DNA from: Candidatus Promineifilum breve
GTDB lineage: Bacteria; Chloroflexota; Anaerolineae; Promineifilales; Promineifilaceae
Direction of reading: 5' to 3'
Length of the DNA: 64,000 nt
Assembly (NCBI RefSeq): GCF_900066015.1
Contig: NZ_LN890656.1
Coordinates: 62,001-126,000 of the forward strand
A program made the translations under genes and the position numbers. The notes under the pieces were generated by a model. The model was not told where the DNA came from, made no database searches, and saw only the letters and a list, made by a program, of their open reading frames with translations. Of this stretch, positions 38,917 through 47,968 are shown piece after piece (positions within the stretch are counted from its first letter, which is position 1; each line of letters starts with the position of its first letter).

Positions 38917-41307
38917 ATGACCGATAAGAAAAGAACTAGACGAAGAAAAAGTGATGAAGTGGAAGACAACCCATTTCAAAAGGCCATCAAACGGATCTGG
39001 AAGGGCTTAGCGGCGCAGACCGGTCGGGACGAAGCGGATGTCAAGTACGATCTGTTGCTGGAGATGATCGAAAAAGGATATTTGCCGGTCCATAAAGCCG
39101 ATCAGTATACCAACATCCTTGACACCTGGAGCCGGGGCAACGTGCCGCCCGACTGGACGATTTTGCGGTTCCTGGCCGAAGTCGGCTACTTGCGGGCCAA
39201 GTTACCGGATAGCTGGGTGGAAGAATTTCTAATCGCGGGCAATTATCCCAGAGAAGCTATTGGTCCTATCCTGGCCGACTTGCGCGCGGAGAATGCCGAG
39301 ATAGACAGAGGTCTATTGCATAACCTGCCGCAACGCGACCCGTCGCGCTTCGTCGGCCGCCAGGAGGAAGTGGCCCAATTGCGTCGCCTGCTCTCGCCGG
39401 ACAGTAACAGCCAGGCCTGGGTCATCACGGTGGACGGCATCGGCGGCGTGGGCAAAAGCGAACTCGTTTTGGAGGTGGCCGATCAGTTGCGGCAAGAGTA
39501 TGCCCGGCTGCGCCGCCACGAGCGTTTCCAGGCCATCGTCTGGGTCACGGCCAAGGAAACCGGTCTGAGCGATTCCGGCATCATCACCCGGGTTCACCGG
39601 CGAACCTCCTCCCTCGACGACATCTACACCGCCATTGCCCGCGTGCTGGGGCGGCTGGATATTCTGGAGGCGGACGGCCCAACGCGCGATGATCGGATTC
39701 ACGAGGCCCTCGCCGGCACCCGGACGCTGCTGATCATTGACAATCTTGAAAGCCTGAAAGACGAGACCGTGCTGAGTTTTATCCGGGAAGTGCCGCGGCC
39801 GACCAAGGTCGTAGTAACGACCCGCCGCCGCATCGACGTAGCCTATGCCATCCGCTTGATCGGCCTGGCGGATAACGACGCCATGACCCTCATCGAGCGC
39901 GAGGCCGCGCTTAAGGGTGCTTCGCTGAACGAGGAGGAACGGAAGCGCCTATTAACTCTGTCGAAGGGCGTGCCGATCGTCATCAACCTGGTCATTTCCC
40001 GATTAGCCCTGGGTTTGCCGTTCAAGACGGCCGTCCAATATTTGCAGCACCCGGAGTACGATCTCTACCGCTACGCGCTGGAAGATAGCGTCGAATCGCT
40101 TGAGCCGTCGGAAGCCGCCTACCATCTGTTGCTGGCGCTGGCCCTCTGCGCCGGCGATGCTTCCCGCGAGGCTCTGGGCACGGCCGCCGGATTGGACGGC
40201 GACGAGGAGCAGCGGGATGAGGTGCTGGTCCGGCTGGAATCGCTGTCGCTGATCAACCGCGACGCCCGCGAAGACCGCTTCGCCATGCTGCCCCTGACCC
40301 GCTTCTATTTGCGCTCCCGTCTGGCCGCCGACCCGGAATTGGAGCAGCGGCTATTTCAGGGCTTGGCGGCGTTCTATAAAAGGTTGTTCGCGGCCGACGA
40401 GAGCGCTAACCCCGACCGCTACTGGCAGAGCATTCGCGGCGCGGCCCAGGCGGAGGCGCTGCTGGAAAAAGAGTGGGCCACGCTGCGCGACCTCCTGTTC
40501 CGGCTGCACGAGATGAGCAACTATGGCGACTTGTTGACGCTGGGGTTGGCCCTCATCCACCCCATCAATTATATGGGGCCGCTGGAGGATCGGTTGGCGC
40601 TGTGCCGGCGGATGGCCGATGTAGCCCGCGCCGTGAATGATCCGGTGGAGGCGTGGTTGCTCAGTGACGGGATGGGCTGGATGTACTATCGCCTGGGGCG
40701 CGACGATGATTTCCTGGACGTGCTGAACGAAGGACGGTTGGCGGCGGCACGCCATGCGGGGATGGGCCTGGCGCTGACGTTGGCCGACCTGCACGAAGCC
40801 TATCTCCACATCAAACAGGGCCATATGCGCCGGGCCAGGGCGCTGCTGGAGTCGGTTACCGAACAGGTGGCGGCCCATCGCCGGGCGAATCCCACCGAGT
40901 TCATTGGCCTGTTGTTGGGCAGCCGCCTGGCCGACCGCTGGAGCGCCTATTATCAGGCGCTGGGGGAGATCGAGCAGGCGAGCGAGATGCTGAAGGAGTC
41001 GGTGGCCCTGCGCGAATTGAGCGGCGAAGACATGGGATCGACCCATTACAACGTCGGGCGGCTGCGGCTGCTGGCGGGCGATCTGGCGGGCGCGCGGCGG
41101 GCTTTCACCGGGGCGCTCAACTATCCTCAGCACCAGAAATACCGCACCCTGGCCCGCTATGGTCTGGCCCTGGTGGCGGAGCAGGAGGAGAATTGGCCCG
41201 AAGCTATCCGGCAGGCGCGGCAGGCGCTGGACCGGGCCGAACAGATGGGATTGGAGGAAGCGGCCGAAATAGGGGAGTTGTTGGCGAGGTTGAGCGCGTT
41301 TGAATGA
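38917..41307 (+). CDS. NB-ARC-TPR ATPase (STAND)
   Basis: The 796-residue protein starts at ATG after GGGAAGGTGAAC. A basic start (KKRTRRRKSDE) leads to an N-terminal helical region (about 20-135) that resembles effector-associated or DNA-binding adaptor helices but has no firm match. The NB-ARC core (about 145-420) has RFVGRQEEVAQLRRLL, Walker A GIGGVGKSEL with K180, Walker B TLLIIDNLESL, sensor KVVVTTRRRID and GVPIVINLV. A winged-helix-like region and TPR-type repeats (about 560-790) follow. STAND proteins are signal-driven switches, often in immunity or development. A strong promoter with a palindromic operator precedes the gene and suggests repression. Confidence 0.88.
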   Translation: MTDKKRTRRRKSDEVEDNPFQKAIKRIWKGLAAQTGRDEADVKYDLLLEMIEKGYLPVHKADQYTNILDTWSRGNVPPDWTILRFLAEVGYLRAKLPDSWVEEFLIAGNYPREAIGPILADLRAENAEIDRGLLHNLPQRDPSRFVGRQEEVAQLRRLLSPDSNSQAWVITVDGIGGVGKSELVLEVADQLRQEYARLRRHERFQAIVWVTAKETGLSDSGIITRVHRRTSSLDDIYTAIARVLGRLDILEADGPTRDDRIHEALAGTRTLLIIDNLESLKDETVLSFIREVPRPTKVVVTTRRRIDVAYAIRLIGLADNDAMTLIEREAALKGASLNEEERKRLLTLSKGVPIVINLVISRLALGLPFKTAVQYLQHPEYDLYRYALEDSVESLEPSEAAYHLLLALALCAGDASREALGTAAGLDGDEEQRDEVLVRLESLSLINRDAREDRFAMLPLTRFYLRSRLAADPELEQRLFQGLAAFYKRLFAADESANPDRYWQSIRGAAQAEALLEKEWATLRDLLFRLHEMSNYGDLLTLGLALIHPINYMGPLEDRLALCRRMADVARAVNDPVEAWLLSDGMGWMYYRLGRDDDFLDVLNEGRLAAARHAGMGLALTLADLHEAYLHIKQGHMRRARALLESVTEQVAAHRRANPTEFIGLLLGSRLADRWSAYYQALGEIEQASEMLKESVALRELSGEDMGSTHYNVGRLRLLAGDLAGARRAFTGALNYPQHQKYRTLARYGLALVAEQEENWPEAIRQARQALDRAEQMGLEEAAEIGELLARLSAFE

Positions 41308-42863: not shown

Positions 42864-42892
42864 TTGACTGAATGGAAAGATTAGTGTAAACT
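42864..42892 (+). promoter_or_regulatory. Promoter of the pseudo-RSH-STAND operon
   Basis: TTGACT (42864-42869) and TAAACT (42887-42892) are 17 bases apart, a good sigma-70-type promoter. Transcription should begin near 42899, giving a leader of about 120 bases. Confidence 0.65.
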
Positions 42893-42911
42893 AAGAGAAC
42901 AATCAACGAAC

Positions 42912-42981
42912 GATCGGCCGGGGTTCTTAATGGGAAGGGAACCCGCGGCAAGCGTCGATCCCGCCGCGTCCGGCCCCGATC
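42912..42981 (+). ncRNA. Candidate structured 5' leader (three-way junction)
   Basis: A closing stem pairs GATCGGCCGG (42912-42921) with CCGGCCCCGATC (42970-42981), leaving a two-base bulge. Inside are two hairpins: GGGTTC (42921-42926) with GAACCC (42939-42944), and GCGGC (42945-42949) with GCCGC (42963-42967). The fold is a candidate cis-regulatory RNA upstream of the RSH-like gene. I do not recognise any known riboswitch class. Confidence 0.45.
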
Positions 42982-43020
42982 ATTCTCTGGCGACTGATAA
43001 ACAGGATAGATAAGGACTGC

Positions 43021-46000
43021 ATGACCACGACTTCTGGGTCAGCCAATCGCTCACTTGCCGGCATGGCGGCGACCGACGCCGATGTCAAGACGCATCTCGC
43101 GGGTGAGTCGCTGCCGGCCGGTTGGCCCGATCACATCAGCCACCTGGCGACCGAGTGGCGCTTGCCGGCCGAGTCGGTGGCCGCGGCCTGTCTGGTGGCG
43201 GGTGTGCCCTGCGCCGGGTTGGTCGGCCGGCCGCCCCCCAACGTGGTGGAGCTGGCCGTTAAGTTGCTGGAGTGGCAGCGCTACTACCTGCCCGCCGGTC
43301 TGCCCACCGCCACCCCCCAGGACGCGCCGCCCGCCGCCGAGCGCCGCCTGCGCGAGTTCTACCGGGCCATCTGCTGCGACGCGCCCGACATGCGCCACGT
43401 GCTCATGTTGCTGGCCGCCCACCACCTGCGCCTCTTTGGCCCCGACGCCGGCCCGGCGCTGGCCGCCGAAACGCTGGGCGTCTATGCCCCCATGGCCGGC
43501 ATGTTGGGCATGTACCACGTGCGGCGCTGCTGGATCGAAGAGAGCGTGCGCCTGACGCGCGGGGATGAGTATCGCCAACAGGCCGCGGCGATGGGCATCG
43601 TGCTCGACGAGCCGACGTCGGAGGCCCTGGAGAGCGCCGTCGACCGGCAACAGGCGGCCTGGCCCCCGGCCGCGTCTGGCAGCCCCCTGCCGCCCAACCG
43701 CGATCTGCTCGATCTGGAGCAGCGGGCCATCCTGTTTTCGCGCCTGCGCCATGACCTCGATACCGCCCTGCGCCACGAATTCGGCCCCGACAACAAGCCG
43801 GAGGTGCAGCTCATCTTCGACCTGCCCGGCCACGCCCTGCAGCGCCGCGAGCAGGCCATCGGCACGATGGACAACCCGCAGTTGATCGTGCGCGTCGTCT
43901 GCCACAGCCGCGTCGATTGCTACCGGGCCATGGATGTGATCCACAACGTGGGGCGGCTGGCCGGCACCGGGCAGACGCAGGTCATCCGCGACTACATCGC
44001 CGCGCCCCATCCCAACGGCTACCGCGCCTTGCAGACCTACACCATCTGGCCGCAGCCCAGCGAATTCACCAGCGACGGCCGGCTGATCAAGTTCCACATC
44101 CTGACGGCCGAGATGCAGCACCTGAACGAGTGGGGCATCCTGGCCGGCATGGATCAGGACCCTGCGCCGCGCCGCCGTATCGCCGCCTGGTGGAACCATC
44201 TGGATGAGAAGTCGCGCAGTCTGAGCAGCCGCACCAAGGACAAATATGGCGACATCGCCGCCTATTTGCACCACTTTCCGCCGGGCAGCGCCGCCGACCC
44301 GCTCTACTGCTTCACGCCGCTGGGCGAGATCGTGCTGCTGAAGCCGGGGCGCACGGCGCTCGATTTCGCCTATCGCATCCATTCGCAGCTCGGCCCGCAG
44401 ACGGCCAAAGTGTTCATTAACGGCGAGAGTGTGCCGTTGGGAACCCCGCTGCAAAACGGCGATATGGTCAACGTCATCTACGATCCGCTGGTGGCCCATA
44501 TCGATTTTTCGTGGCAGGACCTGGTGGGGTCGAAGCGGTCGTGCCGCAAGATCAGGGCCGCGCTGCAGCGGCGGGCGGGCTTCACCCATCCCGGGCGGGG
44601 CGAGTTCGAGCGGGCGCTCATCCGCCGGCTCGATCTCTACAAGCGCCGCTCGCCCGACCAGCCCTATAGCCCGCCGGCCTGCACCTCCAGCGAGATCGAT
44701 CGGTTCCTGGAGCGGGCGGCGCTGGGCTATGGCGCGGCCGGGCGCGAGGCGCTCTATGCCGACCTGGCCGGCCGGCCGCAACTGGCCGACGAACTGGCGA
44801 ACCGGCTCATCACCGAGAGCAATGTCCGCAATCTACGGCTGCCCAACGGCGAGCCGCTGCCGACGCATCTGAAGCGCATCGAGCAATGCCCGTCTTGTCG
44901 CCCCACCGTCAAGGATGCCATCCACGGCCGGCTGTTCGGCGCGGCCGGCGAGATGCTCATCATCCACATCCCCAGTTGCCGCCGCGGCTCGCCCAACGCG
45001 CCGATCATGGAATTGCAATGGGATACCGAGGATTTGGCCGAGAGCTGGCCGCTCTATCATTTCGAGATCAATACCCGCGACTTCGACGGCCTGCTGAACA
45101 AAATGTTACAGTTGGTCTACGGCATCCCCCACGCCTACCTCTACAGCATCGAGGCCCGCGTCAATGAGTTATATCGGGCCATTATCAAGCTCGACGTCGC
45201 CATCAAGCTGCCCCAGCTTTGTCAGGATTTGCAGGCCCAGATCGTGGCCCTGGCCGATGACACGCAGGTGTCCTACCGGGCGCTGCTGGGCAACCGGCGG
45301 GGCGAGGTCAGCGCCGTCGATATGTCGCGCCAGATCAACAACCCCTTCACCACCAGCGAGGTCACCGATTGGCGCTTCATGGGGCGCGATGAGGTCATCA
45401 ATTCCATCCTCAGTTGGATCAACGGCTACCCCGTGCGCTCGCAGGTGTTGTTGCTCCACGGCCAGCGGCGGGTGGGCAAATCGTCGCTGGTGTCGCGCTT
45501 GTGCGAACAGGGTAAGCTGAAAGAGGGCGAGCGGCCGGTCGTGCCGGTGCGGGTCGATTTTCGCAACGCCAAACTCGATCAACCCCACACCGTGGCCGAA
45601 TTGTTGATTCAGAACATCTTCTACAACGCCATCGGCCAACCACCGCCCCGCCTGGAACTGCACGAAGACCCGCTGATCTGGCTCGACCGCCACCTTCACG
45701 AGGCCGAGCGCCTGTTGGCCGGCAAGCGGCTGCTACTCCTCATCGACGAATTCGATGCGGGCTACGAGAGCTTTGTGGCCGCCAAACGCCGGCCGCGCCT
45801 TCTGGGTCAGTTGCGGGCCATGATGGACGCCCATGCGGGCATTCGCTGGCTGCTGGTGGTGCAGGATGTCTATCTGGCCGACCCCCTGTTGCAGGCGGCG
45901 CTGCCCCATCTGCCGCTGGAAGTGCCCCGCGTCCACGTGGGCCACCTGCCGCCGGAGGCGGCGCGGCAGCTCATCATCGACCTGACCGTGCGCAACGAGT

Positions 46001-46503
46001 ACCGCTTTGCCCCGGCCGCGCCCGGCGAAGACGGCATCCCGGAGCAGATCGTCCAATGGACGGCGGGCAACCCGTATTTCATCCACATCATCGGCCACCG
46101 CTTGTTGAGCCGGGTGGCGCGCGAGAAGACCCGGCTGATTCGCCCCCATGACCTGACGCTGACCATCCAATTGATCCTCGGCCGCCCCATCTTTTTCAGT
46201 CACTTCATCGAGCCGTTCGAGGCGTCCCCGGCGCGGCGGCGCATTGTCTATCATCTGGCCCACACGCTGAAGCTGGGCGAGCGCCGGCCACTGGACGAAA
46301 TGACCCCCACCCTGGCCGCGCTGTGCGACATCCCGGCCGGCGCGGTGGCCGCCCACCTCGATTATATGGCCCAGGTGGGCGTATTGGACGTGGCGCGCGA
46401 TCACCGTCAGGGGGACATGGTCGGCATCCCGGTGCGGATATGGCATGAATGGTTGGCTAATTATTGGGCGGCCGAGCCGGACAACCCCGCCGGCGGCGGC
46501 TAA
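43021..46503 (+). CDS. RelA/SpoT-like protein, catalytically degenerate, fused to a STAND-type ATPase
   Basis: The 1160-residue protein has the full RelA/SpoT domain order. A pseudo-HD region (about 30-200) aligns with ETLGVYAPMAGMLGMYHVRR, but the HD motif reads ACLVAGVPCA. A pseudo-synthetase region (about 240-390) has DCYRAMDVIHNVG and RDYIAAPHPNGYRALQTYTI, but the usual EVQIRT strand reads IKFHILTAEM, losing the catalytic Glu. TGS (about 426-488: TPLGEIVLLKPGRTALDFAY) is followed by helices, a zinc-finger-type segment CPSCRP (C623, C626) and an ACT-like domain (to about 750). A P-loop ATPase closes it: GRDEVINSIL, GQRRVGKSSL with K820, LLLLIDEFDAGYES. Neither ppGpp synthesis nor hydrolysis is expected; it may sense ribosome state or ppGpp and switch the ATPase. 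Confidence 0.85.
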   Translation: MTTTSGSANRSLAGMAATDADVKTHLAGESLPAGWPDHISHLATEWRLPAESVAAACLVAGVPCAGLVGRPPPNVVELAVKLLEWQRYYLPAGLPTATPQDAPPAAERRLREFYRAICCDAPDMRHVLMLLAAHHLRLFGPDAGPALAAETLGVYAPMAGMLGMYHVRRCWIEESVRLTRGDEYRQQAAAMGIVLDEPTSEALESAVDRQQAAWPPAASGSPLPPNRDLLDLEQRAILFSRLRHDLDTALRHEFGPDNKPEVQLIFDLPGHALQRREQAIGTMDNPQLIVRVVCHSRVDCYRAMDVIHNVGRLAGTGQTQVIRDYIAAPHPNGYRALQTYTIWPQPSEFTSDGRLIKFHILTAEMQHLNEWGILAGMDQDPAPRRRIAAWWNHLDEKSRSLSSRTKDKYGDIAAYLHHFPPGSAADPLYCFTPLGEIVLLKPGRTALDFAYRIHSQLGPQTAKVFINGESVPLGTPLQNGDMVNVIYDPLVAHIDFSWQDLVGSKRSCRKIRAALQRRAGFTHPGRGEFERALIRRLDLYKRRSPDQPYSPPACTSSEIDRFLERAALGYGAAGREALYADLAGRPQLADELANRLITESNVRNLRLPNGEPLPTHLKRIEQCPSCRPTVKDAIHGRLFGAAGEMLIIHIPSCRRGSPNAPIMELQWDTEDLAESWPLYHFEINTRDFDGLLNKMLQLVYGIPHAYLYSIEARVNELYRAIIKLDVAIKLPQLCQDLQAQIVALADDTQVSYRALLGNRRGEVSAVDMSRQINNPFTTSEVTDWRFMGRDEVINSILSWINGYPVRSQVLLLHGQRRVGKSSLVSRLCEQGKLKEGERPVVPVRVDFRNAKLDQPHTVAELLIQNIFYNAIGQPPPRLELHEDPLIWLDRHLHEAERLLAGKRLLLLIDEFDAGYESFVAAKRRPRLLGQLRAMMDAHAGIRWLLVVQDVYLADPLLQAALPHLPLEVPRVHVGHLPPEAARQLIIDLTVRNEYRFAPAAPGEDGIPEQIVQWTAGNPYFIHIIGHRLLSRVAREKTRLIRPHDLTLTIQLILGRPIFFSHFIEPFEASPARRRIVYHLAHTLKLGERRPLDEMTPTLAALCDIPAGAVAAHLDYMAQVGVLDVARDHRQGDMVGIPVRIWHEWLANYWAAEPDNPAGGG

Positions 46504-46531
46504 TCGTAACGATAGTAGGAGTTATAAACTT

Positions 46532-47968
46532 ATGTACGGTAATCCTTTTTCAACTTTCCTCTCATCCGGCGTCTTCCTGCCCACCGGGCGGGAGGAAATC
46601 TTGGCCGAAATGGCCCAGGTGATCACCCTGCCGCAGCCCGACGACCGTGAGATTCACGGCCTGCCGGGCATGGGCAAGTCGAGCTTGTTGCGTTATGTCA
46701 ACTCGCCCGACTTCATCCGCGATCAGACGCCCAACTTTATGGGCAAATTCGCCGGCCAGTCCTATCGTTTGTTCATCGTCTACGTCGCCGGCTGGATTGA
46801 GAGCATTCATCCCTACGTCCTACTCTACCGTGAATTTTTCCGCGCCTATCAGAGCTATTACGACCGGATGCTGGCCGAGCACCCGGCCATCGTGCTGCCC
46901 TCGCCGCCTGTGGGCGAAATTGACGATCTGGACGGCCCCAACGCCTTTTCGCGGCTGGAGCCTTATCTGCGCCGCCTGACGCTGGCCGGCATTCGCCCGG
47001 TCATCCTCTTCGACGAATTCGACGATGATCTGGCCTATAAGCGACTGGATGCCGATGAGACCGCCCGGCTCAGTTCGTGGAAAGGGTATTGCTCGCTCAT
47101 CTTCGCCACCGATCGGCGGCTGGAGGACGTGAATACCGACGCCAAAGGCTCGCCACTCTATAAGCGGCTGACCCAAATCGCCTTTCGCGAACTGCTGCCC
47201 GATGAAGCGCGGGAGTTTTTGGCGCAGATCTTGGCGCGGGAAGAACGCACCCTGCCCGATGAGGATATCGATTGCCTGGTGGAACTGGCCGGCGGCTTCC
47301 CCTATCTGTTGATCCTGGCCGGGCGGGCGTTGTGGGACTTGCGCCGCCGCGTGGGGCTGAACCCCCAGGCCGACGAGACGGCCACGCCCTTGCCCGACAC
47401 GGTGAAGCCCTATCTCCACGAGCGCCTGTCGGGCGAGTTTCAACGGGAGTTCGACCAATATCTGAAAGACCGCCCGGCCGACCATCTGCGGGTGTTGTTC
47501 GAGCTGTCGCGGGAAGGGACGCTGTCGTTCGATCCGGCGACGATGACCCGCCAGAGCTTCCGACTGATGGGGCTGGAGGAATACGGGCTGGTCGACATCG
47601 ACGCCGAGGGGCGGATGCGGCTGTTCTCGCCGCTGTTCCGCGAGTTTCTCATCGCCCGCGCCCAACAACCGGCCGCGCCGGCGGCGGTGATGGCCGCGGC
47701 CGAGAACGAGCCGAAGAACCTGACCGAGTTGCAGGCCAACCTCTACAGCGTCTTCCGCAACAAGCCGGATGAGGTGTTGACGTTCGAGGAGTTGGGGCGC
47801 AAGGTGTGGGGCTGGGCGGCCGACCGCCAGAGCGAAGCGACGGGCGATGAGGTGCGCAAGATCCGCATCGCCGTTTCCAAGCTACGGCGGCAGTTGGAAG
47901 AATCGGCCACGGGCGAGCGGATTACGAATATGCGGGGGTGGGGTTATCGGTTTGAGTCGGCGCGGTGA
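46532..47968 (+). CDS. STAND-type ATPase with C-terminal OmpR-type winged helix
   Basis: The ATG at 46532 follows TAGGAGTTATAAACTT and lies 28 bases after the stop of the RelA/SpoT-like gene; the frame is open upstream to 46445 but that overlaps the neighbour. The 478-residue protein has an AAA/STAND ATPase (about 15-300): REIHGLPGMGKSSLLR with K49, Walker B RPVILFDEFDDDL, sensor SLIFATDRRLEDV. A helical region follows, then a winged helix of the OmpR transcription-regulator type (about 395-478: LTFEELGRKVWGW, KIRIAVSKLRRQLEE, ITNMRGWGYRFE). It probably binds DNA in a nucleotide-dependent way. Pairing with the RSH-like ATPase suggests that the latter controls it. Confidence 0.87.
   Translation: MYGNPFSTFLSSGVFLPTGREEILAEMAQVITLPQPDDREIHGLPGMGKSSLLRYVNSPDFIRDQTPNFMGKFAGQSYRLFIVYVAGWIESIHPYVLLYREFFRAYQSYYDRMLAEHPAIVLPSPPVGEIDDLDGPNAFSRLEPYLRRLTLAGIRPVILFDEFDDDLAYKRLDADETARLSSWKGYCSLIFATDRRLEDVNTDAKGSPLYKRLTQIAFRELLPDEAREFLAQILAREERTLPDEDIDCLVELAGGFPYLLILAGRALWDLRRRVGLNPQADETATPLPDTVKPYLHERLSGEFQREFDQYLKDRPADHLRVLFELSREGTLSFDPATMTRQSFRLMGLEEYGLVDIDAEGRMRLFSPLFREFLIARAQQPAAPAAVMAAAENEPKNLTELQANLYSVFRNKPDEVLTFEELGRKVWGWAADRQSEATGDEVRKIRIAVSKLRRQLEESATGERITNMRGWGYRFESAR

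What the first reader, a model, noticed from the sequence alone, without database searches (positions are those of the whole stretch)
42864..47968. Operon of a catalytically dead RelA/SpoT-like protein fused to a STAND ATPase, plus a STAND-winged-helix partner
Seen: the full RelA/SpoT order (HD-like, synthetase-like, TGS, CxxC zinc-type, ACT-like) joined to a P-loop ATPase with K820. The HD pair is replaced (ACLVAGVPCA) and the catalytic Glu strand reads KFHILTAEM. The next gene, 28 bases away, is an ATPase with an OmpR-type DNA-binding end. Known: TGS and ACT parts of RelA/SpoT proteins read ribosome and amino-acid state; STAND ATPases are conformational switches. Inference: an alarmone- or ribosome-stress sensor that controls a transcription switch, perhaps in defence or development.
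Basis: partly seen in the sequence, partly recalled or inferred. Interest (0 to 1): 0.88.

Follow-up and report, generated by a model that had tools for sequence, protein, structure and literature searches.

The report
Dead stringent-response enzyme wired to switch
A bacterial starvation-alarm enzyme has lost both of its active sites, been fused to an ATP-driven molecular switch and paired with a DNA-binding partner, and this two-gene unit recurs across a whole bacterial phylum, so it probably senses growth or translation stress and changes gene expression instead of making the alarm nucleotide.

Summary
Gene A (43021-46503, 1160 aa) has the full long-RelA/SpoT domain order with both active sites destroyed, fused to an intact STAND-type ATPase. 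Gene B (46532-47968), 28 bases downstream, is a second STAND protein ending in an OmpR-type winged helix. It is not a local artefact. I found 29 loci with the RSH-STAND fusion in Chloroflexota (Ardenticatenaceae-like Anaerolineae, Ktedonobacteraceae and others), and B lies immediately downstream in all 29. The catalytic synthetase Glu is lost in 27 of 27 readable homologues, while the guanosine-loop Tyr stays in 26 of 27 and TGS is the best-conserved domain. Many homologues keep the HD metal ligands but put Lys in place of the catalytic Glu. ATPase motifs are intact in all 28 readable A proteins, but B lacks the Walker B Glu in 26 of 28: an asymmetric pair. In Ktedonobacteraceae a sigma-70-family gene sits beside the pair. 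Other sensors (beta-propeller, GAF) occur on similar STAND pairs. Best reading: a pseudoenzyme stringent factor used as the input of a two-protein STAND transcription switch. The ligand is inferred, not shown. I found no description of it in the papers searched.

The parts
42864..42892 (+). putative promoter TTGACT-N17-TAAACT; the block GAAAGATTAGT between the hexamers is identical upstream of the G004 homologue
   Evidence: the pattern occurs once in the whole genome
42893..43020 (+). about 128-nt 5' leader; no Rfam family and no unusual folding energy (z = -0.05)
43021..46503 (+). gene A: pseudo-RelA/SpoT-STAND fusion, 1160 aa
43108..43620 (+). A residues about 30-200: HD-fold remnant, no metal ligands in this copy
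   Evidence: HD_4 1.6e-4; residue table
43708..44280 (+). A residues about 230-420: pseudo-synthetase; D264 to P, E323 to K, Q325 to H; guanosine-loop D/N/Y kept (D324, N332, Y334)
   Evidence: RelA_SpoT 9e-7
44293..44490 (+). A residues 425-490: TGS domain, H454 = E. coli RelA H432
   Evidence: TGS 3.4e-13; numbering checked on the 5iqr alignments
44503..45285 (+). A residues about 495-755: helical, zinc-type (CPSC...H649...C653) and ACT domains
45334..46500 (+). A residues about 772-1160: STAND ATPase, Walker A GQRRVGKSS, Walker B LLLIDEF, GNP motif, C-terminal helical/winged-helix part
46532..47968 (+). gene B: STAND ATPase-like (Walker A GLPGMGKSS, Walker B VILFDEF) plus C-terminal OmpR-type winged helix; ORF listed from 46445, likely start 46532

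Best explanation
A and B form a two-protein STAND transcription switch. In A, a long RelA/SpoT protein that can no longer make or break (p)ppGpp serves as the sensory input. It most likely reads the stringent or translation state, either by binding a guanine or alarmone nucleotide in its dead pockets or by engaging deacylated tRNA or the ribosome through TGS-zinc-ACT. Ligand binding releases A's STAND ATPase, which binds and hydrolyses ATP. A then forms a hetero-oligomer with B, usually an ATP-binding but hydrolysis-impaired STAND subunit, and this places B's OmpR-type winged helices on target promoters, which may include the operon's own. Shown by sequence: architecture, loss of catalytic residues, constant pairing, ATPase asymmetry in the family, winged-helix output. 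Inferred: complex formation, ligand, targets.
For: 29 of 29 RSH-STAND loci have B next to A on the same strand; A and B distances correlate (r = 0.98, 23 pairs). Synthetase Glu E323 is lost in 27/27, whereas guanosine-loop Tyr308 is kept in 26/27 and TGS H432 in 22/28. TGS is the most conserved domain among A proteins (45% against 26-31% for HD, SYNTH, HEL and ACT). A has Walker A and Walker B intact in 28/28; B lacks the Walker B Glu in 26/28 but keeps the Walker A Lys in 25/28. B has Trans_reg_C in all six homologues scanned plus the window copy. A sigma-70-family gene is divergent beside the pair in four Ktedonobacteraceae-group genomes (three confirmed by Pfam). Analogous pairs: beta-propeller-STAND plus STAND-wHTH in the same genome, and GAF-STAND plus STAND-kinase. 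The genome also has two canonical Rels that keep, between them, one synthetase and one hydrolase site, so A is not needed for alarmone turnover.
Against: No ligand, binding or transcription data. R629 (zinc-domain contact to the A-site finger, PMC7058999) and K412 (contact to A76, PMC4974054) are mostly not retained, and five Ktedonobacteraceae-group members plus one other lack H432, so ribosome/tRNA sensing is not secure. The window copy has lost the HD metal ligands, so alarmone binding at that site is unlikely there. The window B keeps Walker B DE, so the asymmetry is not seen in this copy. Correlated A/B distances may partly reflect shared species history.
Confidence: 0.55

Rival explanations
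1. Integrated decoy: A is a sensor STAND carrying a copy of the stringent factor as bait for a phage or competitor effector that attacks Rel, and B is its executor or output partner, as in plant paired NLRs with integrated domains.
For: Sensor/partner gene pairs with a pseudoenzyme copy of a host protein match that design; patchy distribution (14 of 52 genomes of the family); structural relatives include NLR proteins; carriers include Ardenticatenaceae and Ktedonobacteraceae, lineages of filamentous habit (own knowledge).
Against: Output is a winged-helix DNA binder, not a toxin or nuclease; no defence-library match of note and no conserved defence neighbours; the fusion was not found in viral contigs or plasmids.
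Confidence: 0.15
2. A still has a nucleotide-processing activity with a rearranged active site (for example hydrolysis in the copies that keep H/HD/D/N), and the STAND part regulates it.
For: Roughly half of the homologues keep the HD metal ligands (H53 18/28, H77 16/28, D78 14/28, D144 15/28); two carry Asp at the synthetase Glu position.
Against: Catalytic E81 is Lys in 17 of 28 and no copy has the E81-D82 pair together with the metal ligands; D264, E323 and Q325 are never all intact; the window copy has lost all of them.
Confidence: 0.08
3. The RSH part is an inert scaffold or oligomerisation platform, and the true input is the helical C-terminal part of A or B itself.
For: HD and SYNTH diverge strongly and alignments are weak in the Ktedonobacteraceae-group set.
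Against: TGS, zinc-site His/Cys (26/28) and the guanosine loop are held while catalytic residues are lost.
Confidence: 0.1
4. A and B are neighbours but not partners: B is an autonomous regulator and A an unrelated signalling protein.
For: Operon proximity alone is not interaction.
Against: 29/29 adjacency across at least five families, often with short overlaps, and parallel divergence.
Confidence: 0.05

Closest known systems
Long RelA/SpoT homologues (Rel, RelA, SpoT)
   Same: HD-SYNTH-TGS-helical-zinc-ACT order, recognisable fold, TGS His, zinc His/Cys, guanosine loop
   Different: both active sites dead; fused to a STAND ATPase; paired with a DNA-binding STAND partner
Hydrolase-only SpoT with regulatory pseudo-synthetase (Acinetobacter, PMC9974481)
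   Same: a dead synthetase domain kept as a regulatory part
   Different: SpoT keeps an active hydrolase; A has neither activity by sequence
STAND regulators such as MalT, and archaeal ATPases 2qen/2fna
   Same: STAND-type ATPase with Walker A/B; for B a DNA-binding output
   Different: input and DNA-binding output are split over two paired STAND proteins, of which B usually lacks the Walker B Glu
vWA-MoxR ternary conflict systems with RelA or TGS effectors (PMC7159879)
   Same: multicellular bacteria, occasional RelA or TGS domains, STAND modules
   Different: those RelA domains are described as ppGpp-generating effectors in vWA/MoxR operons; no such third gene is conserved here
Plant paired NLRs with integrated domains
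   Same: two linked STAND genes, one carrying an integrated non-catalytic copy of another protein
   Different: no shared ancestry tested; the output here is an OmpR-type winged helix

Membership tests
Long RSH (Rel/RelA/SpoT) | HD-SYNTH-TGS-HEL-zinc-ACT domain order and fold | tested here: met
Long RSH (Rel/RelA/SpoT) | intact synthetase catalytic residues (D264, E323, Q325) | tested here: not met
   P, K and H in the window; E323 absent in 27/27
Long RSH (Rel/RelA/SpoT) | intact hydrolase residues (H53, H77-D78, E81-D82, D144, N148) | tested here: not met
   all lost in the window; E81 replaced mainly by Lys in homologues
Long RSH (Rel/RelA/SpoT) | ribosome/deacyl-tRNA contacts (H432, K412, CC, R629) | tested here: inconclusive
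   H432 22/28 and C613 24/28 kept; R629 and K412 mostly lost
STAND ATPases | Walker A GxxxxGK[ST], Walker B hhhhDE, GxP motif, winged-helix/helical extension | tested here: met
   A 28/28 for the Walker A GK[ST] and Walker B DE; GHP/GNP-type motif in nearly all
STAND ATPases | nucleotide-dependent switching or oligomerisation | not testable with these tools
   needs biochemistry
OmpR-type (Trans_reg_C) DNA-binding regulators (gene B) | Trans_reg_C winged helix above cut-off | tested here: met
   35.2 bits against 26.2 in the window; 28.6-85.8 bits in the six homologues scanned
vWA-MoxR ternary conflict systems | vWA and MoxR genes in the operon | tested here: not met
   no gene other than A and B is conserved across the loci; the genes flanking the pair in the window that were scanned are not vWA or MoxR
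Known anti-phage defence systems (PADLOC 2.0) | specific match of A or B to a defence model | tested here: not met
   only weak ATPase-region matches for A, none for B

The most novel reading that the evidence does not exclude
A bacterial paired-STAND ('paired NLR'-like) system in which the cell's own stringent factor was copied, stripped of catalysis and built in as the sensor: a second, non-enzymatic read-out of the stringent state, or a decoy guarding it, signalling directly to transcription through a hetero-oligomer of an active and a mostly hydrolysis-dead STAND ATPase.
Probability: 0.4. Interest if true: 0.9.

Novelty: new variant of a known kind. Interest (0 to 1): 0.78.

Why it matters
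The stringent response is known as an enzyme reaction: Rel proteins sense starvation and make or break (p)ppGpp. Here the whole sensing protein has been kept, its chemistry removed, and its output rewired to an ATPase switch and a DNA-binding protein. If confirmed, it would be a branch of starvation sensing that does not work by making ppGpp, or a bacterial counterpart of the integrated-decoy immune pairs of plants. It also points to a modular bacterial signalling design (sensor-STAND plus output-STAND) with interchangeable sensors and outputs.

Tried and rejected
A structured leader or ppGpp riboswitch upstream of A: no Rfam family and no excess folding energy. A regulon marked by the conserved promoter block: it occurs once in the genome. 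Viral or plasmid carriage: no fusion found in viral contigs or plasmids. A Rel with a longer open frame in G399 proved to be canonical. The class-wide search with the full-length alignment was dominated by canonical Rels, only about two candidates per genome being scored, so absence there is not evidence of absence. Origin: the tree puts 24 A proteins on one side of a branch, but with weak support (61-73) and long branches, so a single origin is compatible but not shown.

Full report
Observation. The window is a stretch of the second contig of a 5.03 Mb, three-contig genome whose relatives carry names such as Ardenticatenaceae, Anaerolineae and Chloroflexi in public records. From memory, contig sizes of 3.99 and 1.00 Mb would suit 'Candidatus Promineifilum'; this was not tested. 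Profile, family and structure searches agree on the layout of A: HD remnant, synthetase remnant, TGS, helical, zinc-type and ACT domains, then a STAND-like ATPase.

Both active sites are dead. Aligned with 37 canonical Rels of the phylum, the window protein has P, K and H at the synthetase catalytic positions D264, E323 and Q325, and none of the HD metal or catalytic residues (residue numbers of Rel from Streptococcus, as recalled, fixed here by motif). The same genome encodes two canonical-length Rels, one keeping the synthetase motif and one the hydrolase motif, so the cell's alarmone turnover does not need A.

It is a family, not an accident. Searching the window's family found the fusion in 14 of 52 genomes. 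Class, phylum and named-genome searches added further loci, for 29 in all. They include records named Ktedonobacteraceae and several Anaerolineae. B lies directly downstream of A, on the same strand, in 29 of 29, sometimes cut by a contig end and often overlapping by a few bases. No third gene is conserved across the loci. One A (G051) has an in-frame stop, and one (G009) is split over two contigs.

What selection kept and lost. Among 28 A proteins (27 with the synthetase region readable) the synthetase Glu is never Glu, yet the guanosine-loop Asp, Asn and Tyr remain in 27, 25 and 26. TGS His432 remains in 22 and the zinc His and Cys in 26 each. HD metal ligands remain in about half, but the catalytic Glu81 is Lys in 17. 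TGS is the best-conserved domain (45% mean identity, against 26-31% for HD, SYNTH, HEL and ACT and 40% for the zinc domain). Relative to bifunctional Rels the zinc and ACT domains have also diverged less than HD and SYNTH. This is the pattern of a pseudoenzyme that still binds something. Two ribosome/tRNA contact residues known from E. coli RelA, R629 and K412 (PMC7058999, PMC4974054), are mostly not kept; five Ktedonobacteraceae-group proteins and one other lack H432.

The ATPases are asymmetric. A keeps Walker A and Walker B in all 28. B keeps the Walker A Lys in 25 of 28 but the Walker B Glu in only 2 of 28, one of them the window copy. B ends in an OmpR-type winged helix, and its model (mean pLDDT 82) resembles archaeal 2qen, Orc1/Cdc6 and NLR ATPases. 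Parallel divergence of A and B (r = 0.98) fits a complex, with the caveat of shared ancestry.

Context. In four Ktedonobacteraceae-group genomes a sigma-70-family gene lies divergently beside A (three of the four scanned and confirmed with Pfam). The window genome has another pair, a beta-propeller-STAND and a STAND-winged-helix protein, about 10 kb from Rel1. Elsewhere a GAF-STAND protein overlaps a STAND-kinase gene and another lies beside a B-like gene. The RSH pair therefore looks like one version of a modular 'sensor-STAND plus output-STAND' design. A promoter-like site with a block shared with the closest homologue precedes A.

Mechanism. Best supported is a transcription switch whose input is a dead stringent factor and whose output is B's DNA-binding domain. 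Complex formation, ligand and targets are inferred. The rivals are given separately; the integrated-decoy reading is the most interesting and cannot be excluded.

Known or new. The RSH survey passages searched (PMC3153485) do not mention an ATPase or such a fusion. The conflict-system paper (PMC7159879) reports RelA and TGS effectors in vWA-MoxR operons, described as ppGpp-generating and differently organised. Eight literature searches in an open-access library found no description of this fusion or pair. That library omits most subscription papers, so novelty is likely but not proven. By membership A is RSH in fold but fails the catalytic definition, and it is STAND by motifs.

Noticed in passing
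L002 (G000:C1:3921216) and L003 (G000:C1:1881686): Two canonical-length Rels with split functions, one with synthetase motif only and one with hydrolase motif only; both kinds recur in relatives and look like a RelA/SpoT-type division of labour in Chloroflexota.
   Followed up: partly
L074:10804-17124 (G000:C1, about 10 kb from Rel1): A beta-propeller-STAND protein (1656 aa) paired with a STAND-winged-helix protein (440 aa); similar large STAND genes lie near Rel in several relatives.
   Followed up: partly
L135:1208-7044 (G724): A GAF-containing STAND protein overlapping a STAND protein that ends in a Ser/Thr kinase: an output swap on the same paired design.
   Followed up: partly
L131:617-1795, L126:285-1628, L130:5495-6604 and three more: A protein of about 370-450 aa lies beyond B in six genomes of the Ktedonobacteraceae group; the three scanned have no Pfam match; by eye the start resembles a kinase N-lobe.
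   Followed up: partly
window 38917-41307: Another STAND gene (NB-ARC plus TPR, 796 aa) upstream; relatives also lie close to the A/B pair in G045 and G051.
   Followed up: no
L058:8204-9952 and the matching places in G041 and G043: An FHA-winged-helix protein and a divergent Ser/Thr kinase lie beside the A/B pair.
   Followed up: no
L061:4215-7472 (G051): Gene A is split by an in-frame TAG: pseudogene or sequencing error.
   Followed up: no
L155, L156, L158: Adjacent STAND gene pairs with other N-terminal parts (membrane, HTH) in records named Acidobacteria, Thiotrichales and Pseudomonadota.
   Followed up: no
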